This document shows positions 913-63,300 of a stretch of DNA of 64,000 nucleotides, in pieces. This DNA is from Branchiostoma floridae (Eukaryota; Chordata; Leptocardii; Amphioxiformes; Branchiostomatidae). Numbering within the stretch: position 1 is the first letter of the stretch; every line of letters starts with the position of its first letter. The stretch is from NCBI RefSeq assembly GCF_000003815.2, contig NC_049991.1:22044139-22108138 (forward strand), given 5' to 3'. Below the pieces are notes generated by a model that saw only the letters and a list, made by a program, of their open reading frames with translations, had not been told where the DNA came from and made no database searches. The position numbers and the translations under genes were made by a program.

Positions 913-3150
913 GCATTCGAAAGGCGGCTTGCTGCCATGGAGGCCTGTCAGGATGCCGCCCTGGAGGATCTGTCCTCCCATCAGAACCAGACGGCCACCC
1001 GGCAAGAGGAGCGGTTCGCTGGTAAGATTTACTCTCAGGGCTCACGTGCGGCTGCGGCTGGGTTTTGTTAAAGAGATGGAATAGGAACCTCGACAAAAAC
1101 GCAGTTCCGAACGACTTCTTAAGCTTCCGATCCAGGCATTTTCCCTCCTCCAGGATTCTAAACCAATGGGGTCGGGCGTGGCGTAACTGGTAGAGTGTTC
1201 GGCTCGAAATCTAGAAGGTCCCCACCGTGCCCCCGACGCTGTGCCCTCGGGAAAGGCACTTTACACGATGTTCCTCACTTCACCCAGGTGTAAAAAAGGG
1301 GTACCTGACTTCGGTCGGGGAGGTAAAAGACTATCTTTATACCTTCTGTCTGTACTGTGTATGTGGCACTGTTAATATATGTTACAAAACTCGAGTGCAG
1401 TGCCACATTGTCCCCGTCTGTCCAAAAGCAAATACAAAACAAATTCTAAACCAGACCGTATTTCCATCTCCAGATTTCTGCCGGACCAGGCGCATGGGCA
1501 TGTCAACCGGCGATATTCCGGACAGCAGCATCACTGCATCATCCTACTTCAGTGACCGGTGGGCGCCTGCAAAAGCCAGGTTTGGTATCAACGGGAACTG
1601 GATACCGAGGAGAGTAAATGCGAAAGCGGAGTGGCTGAAGGTACACGTTTATAACCTGAATGTCTAATCTGTTTCAGGTTTTGGTCATGAAGTCCAATCG
1701 ACACGCTGTTTTGATGACGTAGGCTGTACCCCGTGTAAAGCCTACGTCACATTTCCTACCCAGGGCCCTGCAGGGCTCTGCCACATTTTTTATGACGTAG
1801 GTTGTACCTGCAGGAGAGCCGGGTGTATGGCGTCATCACACATTTTTATGACGTAGACTGTACCTGCAAGAGACTCTCGTGTATGACGTCATCGCCCATT
1901 TTTATGATGTAATTTGTACCTGTGTAACTACAGATAGACCTGGGCCAGGAGACTCTCGTGTATGGCGTCATCACTCATTTATATGACGTAAGCTGTACCT
2001 GTGTAACTCCAGGTAGACCTGGGCCAGGAGAGCCGAGTGTATGGCGTCATTACACATTTTTATGACGTAATTTGTATGTGTGTAACTCCAGGTAGACCTG
2101 GGCCAGGAGAGCCGAGTGTATGGCGTCATCACCCAGGGCCGCCCGGAGATTGACCGGTGGACGATAACGTACAAGCTGTCCTTCAGCACGGACGGGCAGA
2201 CCTGGACCACGTACGCCGGCACAGACGGCTCCGAGAAGGTACTTACGGTTACAGTTCCTGATACAAGTAGCTAATAACCCACCACATGAGTGGACGACAC
2301 ATAAGTTAGACGGACATCACATGGATTAGACGGACGACATATTGGTTAGACGGAGACCACATGGGTTAGACGGACACCACATGGGTTAGACGGATACATG
2401 GGTTAGACGGACATCACGTGGGTTAGACGGACGGCGCATGGGTTAGACGGACGGCGCATGGGTTAGACGGACGGCACATGGGTTAGACCGACGCCACATG
2501 GGTTAGATGGACGCCACATGGGTTAGATGGTCACCACATGGGTTAGATGGACACCACATGGGTTAGATGGATACCACATGGGTTAGACGGACGCCACATG
2601 GGTTAGACGGACGCCACATGGGTTAGATGGTCACCACATGGGTTAGATGGACACCACATGGGTTAGATGGATACCACATGGGTTAGATGGACACCACATG
2701 GGTTAGACGGACGACACATGGGCTAGATGGACACGTGGGTTAGACGGACGACTCATATGGTAAGATAAACACCACATGGGTTAGACGGACGTAACATAGG
2801 TATGACGGAGTCCACGTAGGTTATCACATCGGTTAGACAGCAGTCACGTTGGTAAGACGGCATCCACTTTGGTTAGAAGGACGCCACATAATGCACATTC
2901 AAATCCGAACACAAGGACTTCTTTCAATTCCTACAAATGCCCTTTCCACGGTTTGAAATGACCCTAGCTCCTCCCCCTGTGTCTATAGGTGTTCCAAGGG
3001 AACTATGACCGGTCCTCGCCGGTGTACAACTTCCTGGACTCGCCTGTGACGACGCGGCATGTCCGGTTCCACCCTCTAACGCACCAGGGGCTGCGTGCAG
3101 CTGTGAGGATGGAGATACTGGGATGTCCCACGGAGCTACTGTTACAGTAG
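913..3150 (+). CDS. F5/8 type C (discoidin) domain protein, 3' part of gene, four exons
   Basis: Four coding exons join in phase: 913-1021, 1474-1640, 2092-2238 and 2989-3150 (stop TAG 3148-3150). The first encodes a charged, probably coiled-coil stretch (AFERRLAAMEACQDAALEDL). The next three encode one discoidin domain: an opening Cys with GDIPDSSITASS, then WLK, VDLGQESRVYGVITQGR, YKLSFSTDGQTW, and the closing VRFHPL...RMEILGC, which is the family's typical end. Such domains bind lipids, glycans or collagen, usually outside the cell. The protein ends ten residues after the final Cys. Upstream exons lie outside the window or were not recognised in 1-912. The family is clear; the specific gene is not. 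Odd feature: the third exon's acceptor and first ~45 coding bases are tandemly repeated upstream. Confidence 0.82.
1166..1442 (+). mobile_element. tRNA-derived SINE with 11-bp target-site duplication
   Basis: The head looks like a tRNA promoter (GGCGTAACTGGTAGAG as A box, then a weak B-box region). A body follows with GGGAAAGGCACTTTACACGA and CACTTCACCCAGGTGTAAA, a block I recognise as common in invertebrate SINEs. The tail is A-rich (AAATACAAAACAA). The element is flanked by ATTCTAAACCA at 1155-1165 and 1443-1453, a perfect 11-bp duplication. The right copy lies only 20 bp before the acceptor of the exon at 1474. Confidence 0.72.
1780..2135 (+). repeat. ~79-bp tandem repeat containing splice acceptor and exon start
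   Basis: The unit runs TATGACGTAAnnTGTACCTG, TGTAACTCCAG, GTAGACCTGGGCCAGGAG, then GTATGGCGTCATCAC. The last copy (from 2092) is the real 5' end of a discoidin exon. Clear copies begin near 1926 and 2003, and more degenerate ones near 1800 and 1860. Copies near 2003 and 2082 both keep an intact AG acceptor and the VDLGQE...YGVI coding sequence. Confidence 0.8.
2281..2885. repeat. intronic minisatellite, ~21-bp unit
   Basis: About 28 copies of a unit close to ACATGGGTTAGACGGACGCC, with variants at the last positions, becoming degenerate after ~2750. It lies in the last intron of the discoidin gene and contains no exon sequence. Confidence 0.9.
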
Positions 3151-60300: not shown

Positions 60301-63300
60301 ACGGAATGGGCCCGTCAACTGTAGCTTCCGGTACGTGACGTCTGAAACACGTGACTGCAGCAGAGGGTCGTAAATGCCAGAAAACCTGTGTCGCCCCCCG
60401 TCTCTGTTCAGTGGTAGACGGTGGGCGCAGATGTACACAACATTTTCAATATTATCGCCGATTTACATCACCCTTAAATCTCCGTGTTTGCTTCCCTCTC
60501 CAGAGCGGAGGACCTGGATGCCGTTCCGGCCGCCCTCTGCTCAGCCGTGACCCAGAAGGTCGCAGGCTCCGAGCGGCTGTTCGACACGCAGGAGATCCGC
60601 CAGCAGAAGCACGCCACCAACGCGCTCAGGTGCCGGGTACGTGCTGAACACTTTCTCTTCTTGAACTAATTTACACGTTATGCAAATAGAACACGTGACT
60701 CAGTGAGCAGTGGATCATAGGTTGCAGGAAGTCTATGACGCCCACCGTCTCTGTTCAGGGATAGTTGTAAAGCTCTGATGACTTATTTAATCCCTCAAGC
60801 GAAAATGTCTGGTTCTATGCTTTCTCTTCACGTCTTCCCGAGTTTTACAAAGTTTAACAACCTCGTCCCACGTTTTGCCTTTAAAATTTTTCGTGTATGT
60901 CATCTCAATGAGCAACAAAGAGATGTATTGCCAACTCTCATTCGCCATCCGGGTTTTTTGAAGACCTCATGATTCAAGAAAAATTCACATCTGGTGAATT
61001 GCAAGACATCTACTAAAATAAATGACTGCTAAAGTATCAGTAGTTCCCTTAAGATATCCGGGTGTTAAAGATATCCTAAAAGAAATCCACCGATGGGTTC
61101 ACTATATGGCGACCTTAGGGTACGCGGTGGGAGCTGAAGTTATAGGGAGGTAAAACAAACAAACAAACACTTGTGAGAAACATTGTAAGCACGATGATGT
61201 CCTTCTGCAGGGTAAGGAGACCAGCGGGGATCTGGGCGAGTCTGACGTGGAAGAACTGGGTAACCTGATCTGCGGCGCTGAGGACGCGGTTCTGGGCAGG
61301 GTGGACGCTTCAGGCGCCAGGACTGCTCTGGAGAACCTGCAGAACTGCCCGACTAAGTGCCTCTCGGAAGACAGGAAGACTAAGATTCGGGAAGTCTTTG
61401 GGAAGATGACAGCGTGAGTAGACTTGTGGGAAGATGATGTTATAGTGACTCAAACTAAGAGGGTTGTTTACCCGGCAACCCTCTCTGTCACAAGAGGGTT
61501 GTTTACCCGGCAACACCTTATTCACCTAGCCTCACCAGGTCTTTCTAAGGGGATACGGGATAGTAGAATTCAGGAAAAATGTATGCCTTACATGATCTGA
61601 GCTCCAAAACTACTGCCTTTGTACAGAAAATGAGTGGATTAGTTTTATTGCCTTTCATCAAATCGTAATACCACAGACTGCATACGCGGCCCACCAACTG
61701 ATAATGATAATGTTTCATGTGGATAAAAAGATAGCAGACATTTGTTTGTAGAGAACAAAAGGTGTTTCTGTATTCATTTTTGTTGCCTCCCCCAGTGATG
61801 CAGAGCCAGCTCAGATTGACGTGGACTCCATCGCTGCCATCGGCCTGAACGCGTATGTCCTGCCGGACGCAACCATCGAGGGAATCCCCAACGTGAGTAA
61901 CGCAACACATGAGTTTCTATTGAGATCTACTCTTTTATCAAGAAGTCTATCTTTCCACAAATGCTGTAAATTCCACATTAATTATGAATAGTTGAGTGGA
62001 ACATTAAAAAGAATCACAATGTCTGTTCCCTGATACAACAATGATGTTCCTAGACCCTCAGTTTTACATGCAGGCATTGAGAAGTGGGTGAGGTTCCTCA
62101 GTGTTTATATGTTCGTTTTGTTAAACTCACTTTCTTCCTCCATGCCCTGTTTTGTGCGTGTCCAGACCGTCGTTGCCGAGGTTCTCTCCATGGTGGATGA
62201 TATTGACGTGGTGAAGGAGGAGGTACTGGAACAGATGGACAGCAGCTGTGGAATTGACAGGTAAGAAATATGTTTTAATCGTGTAACCCCAGTGTGTCAT
62301 TCCATCCTGTTCCATAGCAACGGCAGATGTTGGAGTATTCCATCCTGTGCCATAGCAACGGCAGATGTTGGTGTATTCCATCCTGTACCATAGCAACGGC
62401 AGATGTTGGAGTATTCCAACCTGTACCATAGCAACGGCAGATGTTGGAGTATTCCATTCTCTGCCATAGCAACGTTGTAGATGGGCCTAACCCTCTGTGG
62501 TCCAGGTATACATGTACTTTCAGTACGATAAGCAAGCTGTCAATGATTTTCTTAGCTAAATGGTGATGCTCGTTATTTCCAGAACTGCGATGTATAACAA
62601 GATTGTGGAGGCCACCACAGGATCGTCCAGCGCCAGACGCAAGAGGTCAACTACAGGTCAGTGCTAGTCAGTCACCTGTCAATCACCTGTCACTTGGCAA
62701 TCACCTAGCTCAGCTCTGGTCCTTTCAAGGAAAGCAAAACTCGATGGTCGTTGATATATATTTCTGGTAAGAAATAGGGTAACACATCGTGTACCGAAGT
62801 AACTTTACATGACTGAATTTTTCCCGGTCCCTTCCCCAGGTGTTCAGATTTGACCTTCATTTGTCCCTTCCCTAGTGTACACCTGTACGCAGGTGCAACA
62901 CATTAGTTCCGGACTTACCTGTCCCCGTCCCTCCCAGTGTACACCTGTACCCAGGTGTAACACACTAGTTCAGGCCTGACGTTCCTTTATACCCTCCCCA
63001 GTTTACACCTGTACGCAGGTGCAGGACCTCGGGAACGCCGCCGTGAGTCTGACGGAAGCCGAGCTGGGCGCCATGACGTCTGCGGAGTTCACGAACTGCC
63101 TGGAGACTCTGGGCGGGCTGACCGGCTGGAGCACCGGCCAGCTGGAGACCATGAGGGACAAGGTCTTCTCCGTAAGTCTTCATCTTCTGTCAATCTATAG
63201 TAGGAGCAATCATGAGCAGTCCCTTGGCCGCACCTGGGGCAATTGCTGTCGTATTGAGGTCACCTGAGTGGCGCCGAATGGCAGCTCGCTCCAGACCCTT

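What the first reader, a model, noticed from the sequence alone, without database searches (positions are those of the whole stretch)
1780..63030. Splice-junction-anchored tandem arrays in several genes across the window
At least fifteen tandem arrays have units that include the edge of the adjacent exon with its real donor or acceptor. Examples: acceptors at 1780-2135, 18750-19085, 19560-20440, 26815-27375, 28190-28620, 33215-33565, 39650-40365, 49785-49975, 54640-55200 and 62830-63030; donors at 17045-17780, 21420-21590, 22030-22320, 25770-26245, 28630-29995 and 30390-30720. They occur in three unrelated genes, on both strands, and the copied exon part is about 15 to 70 bp. Ordinary intronic minisatellites should not start so regularly at exon borders. 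I infer a local duplication process that initiates at or is retained at splice junctions, giving series of competing splice sites. It may be a route to intron growth, new exons or new splice isoforms.
Basis: partly seen in the sequence, partly recalled or inferred. Interest (0 to 1): 0.9.

Follow-up and report, generated by a model that had tools for sequence, protein, structure and literature searches.

The report
Exon-edge tandem repeat arrays in lancelet
Short stretches that straddle the edge of an exon and its neighbouring intron have been copied many times in a row in this lancelet genome; the phenomenon is already known as "mirages", but here the copies look as if they keep being made from the working exon edge and then decay into the intron, which would be a steady way for introns to grow.

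Summary
In detail: at each of the 16 named spans a splice border is copied in tandem, with 7-69 bp of exon. The kind is not new: it is the amphioxus "mirage", published for Adh3, troponin C, globins and PGBD5; Adh3 here shows it at both borders. New are numbers and a mechanism lead. In window genes 15 of 27 arrays span a splice border against 3.9 expected from unit size (7.2 from whole length); flanking genes give 13 of 27 against 3.3 (6.4). Genome-wide, triple donor words with 34-49 bp units number 250 against 4 reversed, single words 26,530 against 19,446. By coverage, borders are not enriched, and arrays are patchy: four GH31 paralogue loci and 20 kb of C1 hold almost none. Decoys carry an imprint of the working exon edge: variation sits at third codon positions, donor hexamers stay nearly intact, similarity falls with distance from the exon in 18 of 21 arrays. 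Best reading: the selected exon edge is a lasting master copy.

The parts
1782..2132 (+). acceptor array (unit about 79 bp) of the F5/8 type C gene exon starting 2092; 38 bp of exon copied
   Evidence: homologous arrays at C13 and C5 paralogues
17202..17774 (-). donor array (unit 164 bp) of GH31 exon 17727-17879; 48 bp of exon copied
18732..19121 (-). acceptor array (about 75 bp) of GH31 exon 18554-18767; 27 bp of exon copied
19560..20434 (-). acceptor array (82 bp, 10.6 copies) of GH31 exon 19518-19602; 43 bp of exon copied
21466..21583 (-). donor array (39 bp) of GH31 exon 21551-21702
22038..22310 (-). donor array (about 39 bp) of GH31 exon 22292-22425; 19 bp of exon copied
25750..26250 (-). 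donor array (75 bp) of GH31 exon 26236-26348; 15 bp of exon copied
26808..27404 (-). acceptor array (76 bp) of GH31 exon 26713-26823; 16 bp of exon copied
28181..28620 (-). acceptor array (98 bp) of GH31 exon 28102-28220; 40 bp of exon copied
28638..30001 (-). donor array (45 bp, about 30 copies) of GH31 exon 29971-30090; 31 bp of exon copied; 26 of 26 matched decoys keep GT
30410..30729 (-). donor array (40 bp) of GH31 exon 30699-30798; 31 bp of exon copied
33219..33545 (-). acceptor array (137 bp) of GH31 exon 33113-33287; 69 bp of exon copied; 1 of 2 decoys keeps AG
39600..40302 (-). acceptor array (about 121 bp) of exon 39495-39668 of an unnamed gene; 60 bp of exon copied; TRF row starts at 39674
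49786..49973 (+). acceptor array (64 bp) at the exon starting 49955 of the mesothelin/stereocilin-like gene; 18 bp of exon copied
54656..55185 (+). acceptor array (53 bp) before exon 55179-55341; only 7 bp of exon copied; the paralogue has a homologous array
62851..63023 (+). acceptor array (62 bp, 2.7 copies by TRF) at exon 63002; 22 bp of exon copied, one decoy found
2305..2877 (+). array (20 bp) that spans no border, as a contrast
52463..52926 (+). array (87 bp) ending 16 bp before exon 52943; spans no border

Best explanation
These are mirages: minisatellites whose unit straddles an existing exon-intron border. A tandem duplication covering a border is tolerated because splicing at the exon-side site restores the message. 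From then on the exon-side copy is the only one under selection (codons, splice signal), so it serves as a lasting master copy. New units arise next to it, are pushed into the intron and decay there as non-functional decoy splice sites. An array anchored to a selected sequence keeps a good template and outlives arrays lying wholly in the intron, which gives the border excess. Shown: border excess, genome-wide donor excess, size dependence, polarity, third-codon-position and donor-hexamer imprint in decoys that would not be translated. Inferred: that new units are born from or corrected by the exon-side copy, that longevity rather than initiation makes most of the excess, and that the spliceosome ignores the decoys.
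For: Border excess: 15 of 27 window arrays vs 3.9 expected and 13 of 27 flank arrays vs 3.3. Genome-wide: triples of MAGGTRAGT with 34-49 bp units 250 vs 4 reversed, 52-64 bp units 169 vs 9, singles 26,530 vs 19,446. Size dependence: border share 1 of 7, 5 of 12, 23 of 32 by rising score; length 353 vs 112 bp, p=0.01. Polarity: identity to the working border falls with distance in 18 of 21 arrays (p=0.0015); measured from the far end it falls in 6 of 21. Imprint: columns variable among decoys 58 of 258 at codon position 3 vs 31 of 259 and 23 of 257 in 22 arrays (phase-rotation p=0.00015; without CpG 34 of 222 vs 22 of 235 and 16 of 239, p=0.006); the decoy majority differs from the exon at 28 of 300 vs 6 of 301 and 5 of 300 columns (p=0.00005); 17 arrays higher, 3 lower, 2 equal. 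Donor hexamer deviates 1.3% vs 5.5% within 15 bp, lower in 10 of 10 donor arrays, p=0.002; exon-side half less variable than intron-side half in 17 of 21 arrays. Decoys are hardly translatable: 17 of 163 open, 6 open and in frame. Composition does not explain it: GC of introns 0.425, arrays off borders 0.444, border arrays 0.486. Positive control: Adh3.
Against: By coverage, borders are not richer in repeats than introns (0.18 vs 0.19-0.28). Small arrays already exceed expectation (5 of 15 vs 1.4), so initiation may also be biased. Acceptor AG conservation is not significant (11 arrays, p 0.08-0.13; in one acceptor array 3 of 5 decoys lack AG), and the acceptor word TTYCAGG gives 942 vs 354 triples with singles 168,097 vs 105,989, a small excess. 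The two mesothelin-like genes show no significant excess (2 of 7 and 2 of 9). Exon models are computed here, not annotated, and GH31 exons were curated with the sequence in view. Globin mirages were described as concerted inside the cluster with cluster boundaries excluded, a different pattern. Three of 21 arrays show no decline of identity with distance.
Confidence: 0.62

Rival explanations
1. Targeted initiation: splice borders are hot spots for tandem duplication (for example through transcription, R-loops or breaks at borders), and arrays there are no longer-lived than others.
For: Arrays under 2.5 copies already span borders in 5 of 15 cases against 1.4 expected; a 22-bp, two-copy repeat in a locus almost free of arrays (L029 5900-5946) spans a donor-like site.
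Against: Border share and length rise with array score; polarity and codon imprint show a lasting role of the exon-side copy, which initiation alone does not predict.
Confidence: 0.22
2. Chance: the region is so full of arrays that many borders fall in them.
For: Arrays fill 29% of the GH31 gene span, and border coverage does not exceed intron coverage.
Against: Both placement nulls are exceeded in window and flank; the reversed donor word gives 4 against 250 triples genome-wide.
Confidence: 0.05
3. Decoys are functional: selected splice-site clusters that tune splicing or give isoforms.
For: At most borders the decoys keep GT or AG; the donor hexamer is more constant than its neighbours; the 45-bp array at 28638-30001 holds very long minus-strand open frames.
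Against: The dinucleotide is not clearly more constant than the same dinucleotide elsewhere in the unit (7 of 282 vs 17 of 456); 157 of 163 decoys would give a stop or frameshift; a constrained master copy predicts the same hexamer pattern.
Confidence: 0.08
4. Assembly artefact: false copies from misassembled haplotypes.
For: The window has four runs of N, and published mirages differed in copy number between assemblies or haplotypes.
Against: Copies differ from each other in an ordered way, with polarity and codon pattern; Adh3, reported independently in the literature, shows arrays here; published resequencing supported the PGBD5 repeats.
Confidence: 0.03

Closest known systems
Amphioxus 'mirages' (Adh3, Canestro et al. 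2002; troponin C; globins BflGb6 and BflGb9, PMC3087553; PGBD5, PMC3902484)
   Same: Tandem minisatellites spanning exon-intron borders at donors and acceptors, units of tens to about 160 bp, decoys with AG/GT, proposed link to intron gain.
   Different: Those reports treat single genes or a gene family. Here several genes with a placement null, a genome-wide motif count, and evidence for a selected master copy with polarity.
Internal tandem repeats at exon-intron boundaries of human genes in segmental duplications (PMC2812944)
   Same: Variable minisatellites at borders, in recently duplicated genes (passages).
   Different: There the repeats change exons or form novel introns and alternative transcripts; here the arrays lie on the intron side and the message is expected to stay unchanged.
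Intron gain by tandem genomic duplication (PMC4974935, search listing only)
   Same: Local tandem duplication and copied splice signals.
   Different: Here duplications span an existing border and lengthen an intron; no new intron was seen.
Polar variability of human minisatellites (recalled, no call)
   Same: Turnover concentrated at one end of the array.
   Different: Here the stable end is a selected exon edge.

Membership tests
mirage (amphioxus border minisatellite) | Tandem units that include an exon-intron border | tested here: met
   16 of 16 spans
mirage (amphioxus border minisatellite) | Occurs at both donors and acceptors | tested here: met
   10 acceptors and 6 donors among the 16 spans
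mirage (amphioxus border minisatellite) | Unit size in the published range (10-72 bp in Adh3, about 150-160 bp in globins) | tested here: met
   border arrays with units of about 39-164 bp in the window, from 26 bp in the flank
mirage (amphioxus border minisatellite) | Many, not all, copies keep AG/GT | tested here: met
   275 of 282 dinucleotide letters agree with the decoy majority in 21 arrays
mirage (amphioxus border minisatellite) | The published example Adh3 shows the structure in this genome | tested here: met
   L035 (best TIGR02818 match, 2.9e-37): 59 bp x 6.9 at the acceptor and 33 bp x 9.8 at the donor; exon borders read by eye
mirage (amphioxus border minisatellite) | Does not disturb regular splicing | not testable with these tools
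   needs RNA reads
mirage (amphioxus border minisatellite) | Copy number differs between haplotypes or body cells | not testable with these tools
   one haplotype held; paralogues differ
intron gain by tandem duplication | Duplication within an exon that creates a new intron | tested here: not met
   arrays lie at existing borders; six GH31 array borders join in line with maltase-glucoamylase
subtelomeric minisatellites | Concentration near chromosome ends | tested here: inconclusive
   window 299-363 kb and Adh3 0.63 Mb from contig ends; donor-triple loci on contigs of known length 9 of 26 within 2 Mb of an end vs 3.5 expected, but one of the two capped lists shows no excess

The most novel reading that the evidence does not exclude
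In lancelets, purifying selection on exon edges turns splice borders into lasting sources of new intron DNA: an exon-edge conveyor that keeps emitting decoy splice sites into introns, so that coding selection leaves a readable imprint in non-coding repeats and drives intron growth gene by gene.
Probability: 0.5. Interest if true: 0.75.

Novelty: new member of a known kind. Interest (0 to 1): 0.58.

Why it matters
Mirages have been reported gene by gene, and how they arise was called unclear. A measured border excess and an imprint of the working exon edge in its decoys turn them into a testable process of intron growth. The decoys form a time-ordered record of exon-edge evolution, and the arrays are a natural test of how the spliceosome chooses one site among up to about 30 near-identical ones.

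Tried and rejected
Coverage test at borders: no excess. It is a result against a simple reading, but it does not answer the placement question, because array footprints are much longer than units. First placement tests (15 of 28, 14 of 28, 31 of 52) counted start and stop ends of genes as borders and one array inside a coding coiled-coil exon; one search repeats them with splice borders only and is the one cited. Base composition as the cause: rejected. Selection on decoy AG/GT from the first 30-mer analysis (two borders left out as exon-internal): not distinguishable from the same dinucleotide elsewhere. One search found decoys by similarity around the border and so favoured the centre; replaced by flank-only detection, which dropped 4 of 25 arrays for fewer than three decoys. 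The arrays were picked by hand: 23 of the 38 C13 borders with copies, plus two of Adh3; one search adds the one further splice border with three decoys; the other 14 have fewer than three intron-side decoys or are not splice borders (one, 22115429, is a stop-codon end whose 22 copies lack GT). Translation of decoys as the cause of the codon pattern: rejected. Raw donor triples with 25-55 bp gaps (2127 vs 14) are inflated by a 50-51 bp family on both strands, so gap ranges without it were used. These are placements, not loci, the lists are capped at 100, and at least one match (the 39.7-kb window array) is antisense to its gene. Chromosome-end enrichment: only suggestive; of five near-end samples one was all N, two had no repeats, one held donor-like arrays and one a 204-bp satellite. 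Presenilin could not be placed; globin places were listed but not used. Earthworm paper PMC12783039 (passages): intronic minisatellites, not at borders.
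Full report
Observation. The window is C13:22044139-22108138 of a 513-Mb genome. I take it for a lancelet from genome size, gene content and the Adh3 arrays described below; no tool named it. TRF has rows at all 16 spans of the finding. The border 30-mer is repeated on the intron side at all 16, with 1 to 26 further copies and 7-69 bp of exon copied. 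A joined-exon query covering part of GH31 aligns with maltase-glucoamylase (PDB 9kz6); six array borders lie inside it (26823, 26713, 26236, 22292, 19602, 18767) and the first domain's alignment runs across each of these joins.

Is it more than chance? Two nulls were used, with splice borders only. If a unit-sized duplication lands at random in the gene (not engulfing an exon and not inside one), 3.9 of 27 window arrays should span a border; 15 do (p=1.3e-7). If whole array footprints land at random, 7.2 are expected (p=7e-4). Flanking genes (about 109 kb of readable sequence around the window), including an ion-channel gene (Pfam Ion_trans; TRPM is my recalled label) whose exons were predicted without looking at arrays, give 13 of 27 against 3.3 and 6.4 (p=9e-7, 0.0025). 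Single genes: GH31 12 of 16, the channel gene 9 of 14, the two mesothelin-like genes 2 of 7 and 2 of 9 (not significant). Against this, a coverage measure shows no border excess: 0.18 of 134 borders lie in repeated sequence, points 120-1000 bp into introns 0.19-0.28. The two results agree if border arrays are numerous and long but other arrays also fill the intron interior.

Genome-wide. The donor word MAGGTRAGT occurs 26,530 times, its reverse 19,446 times. Three donor words in tandem with 34-49 bp units occur 250 times against 4 for the reverse, with 52-64 bp units 169 against 9. These are placements, so one long array counts several times; by hand the 100 listed places fall into about 25 loci on C1-C9. 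The acceptor word TTYCAGG, a weak marker, gives 942 against 354 triples with singles 168,097 against 105,989, a much smaller excess. Better conservation of the donor word inside arrays (below) adds to the donor excess, so it does not measure border preference alone.

Patchiness. Repeat coverage is about 16% of non-coding sequence in the C13 region but 0-1.7% in four GH31 paralogue loci and 20 kb of C1. Two F5/8-gene loci on C5, found through array similarity, are rich (0.35 and 0.16). One small case is visible in a poor locus: a 22-bp, two-copy repeat across a donor-like site (L029 5900-5946). Adh3, the classic mirage gene, lies 0.63 Mb from the end of C6 and has a 59-bp acceptor array and a 33-bp donor array. 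The window lies 299-363 kb from the end of C13. A sample 250 kb from the end of C5 also holds a donor-like array, 3 of 4 copies with GTGAGT. End enrichment of donor-triple loci is 9 of 26 against 3.5, but one of the two lists shows none, so this stays open.

What the decoys say. The arrays used are 23 of the 38 C13 borders with copies, chosen for several copies, plus two of Adh3; one search adds one more. First, similarity to the working border falls with distance in 18 of 21 arrays with four or more decoys (p=0.0015), while measured from the far end it falls in only 6 of 21: copies near the exon look young, far ones old. Second, variation in the copied exon pieces sits at third codon positions of the real reading frame: 58 of 258 columns against 31 of 259 and 23 of 257 (phase-rotation p=0.00015; 0.006 without CpG), and majority differences from the exon 28 of 300 against 6 of 301 and 5 of 300 (p=0.00005). 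Third, the exon-side half of the unit varies less than the intron-side half in 17 of 21 arrays. Fourth, the donor hexamer of decoys is more constant than its neighbours in 10 of 10 donor arrays, while the acceptor AG is not significantly so; the last two points come from flank-only detection. Decoys are hardly translatable: 6 of 163 would keep an open, in-frame reading. Neutral copies made once would not show a codon pattern. Copies made from, or corrected by, an exon edge under selection would.

Retention or initiation. Border share rises with array score (1 of 7 below 100, 5 of 12 from 100 to 300, 23 of 32 above) and border arrays are longer (353 vs 112 bp, p=0.01); small arrays (under 2.5 copies) already show 5 of 15 against 1.4. 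I read this as mainly longevity, with some initiation bias possible. F5/8 and mesothelin-like paralogues share similar arrays at the same borders, so arrays can outlive gene duplication.

Known or new. Tandem repeats spanning borders in amphioxus are known as mirages: globins (PMC3087553, section 16 and passages read), PGBD5 (PMC3902484, passages), Adh3, troponin C and other loci (presenilin, retinol dehydrogenase), seen only as cited in those papers. An intron-gain model was already drawn there. The listings of seven searches of the held library showed no genome-wide count and no master-copy evidence for mirages; the 2002 Adh paper itself is not held, and only a few papers were opened, so this is limited. 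The filing is: new members of a known kind, with new evidence on mechanism.

Noticed in passing
window 21551-21702 and 21741-21892 (minus): Two copies of the GH31 exon with the DICGF motif, 36 of 43 compared residues alike, separated by only 38 bp, too short for an intron: probably mutually exclusive exons. A GH31 paralogue on C7 (L030 about 9005-9122 and 9175-9291) also has two adjacent copies.
   Followed up: partly
window 8465-13895 (plus): A non-LTR retrotransposon with two long open frames (471 and 1398 aa; zinc knuckles, reverse transcriptase and RNase H recognised by eye).
   Followed up: no
window 49955-64000 and C13:22115429-22131000: Inverted pair of mesothelin/stereocilin-like genes, 86-97% identical in the eight exons compared, sharing arrays at two acceptors.
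   Followed up: partly
window 28447-29868 (minus): The 45-bp donor array holds minus-strand open frames of 473 and 438 aa.
   Followed up: no
C1:9479866, C1:20224899, C1:29239706, C1:31807514, C2:1601996 and others: A tandem family with 50-51 bp spacing that carries the donor word, on both strands: perhaps a mobile element or satellite.
   Followed up: no
L041 (C12:22723001-22724500): A 204-bp satellite, 6.6 copies, 99% matches, 250 kb from the contig end.
   Followed up: no
window 24853-24952, 32611-32710, 34936-35035, 41525-41635: Four runs of N (100, 100, 100 and 111 bases), likely assembly gaps.
   Followed up: no
L003 177-508 and C13:22027194-22027590: Tandem repeats with units of 66 and 75 bp inside coiled-coil-like exons of the F5/8 type C genes, so coding arrays occur in the same family.
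   Followed up: no
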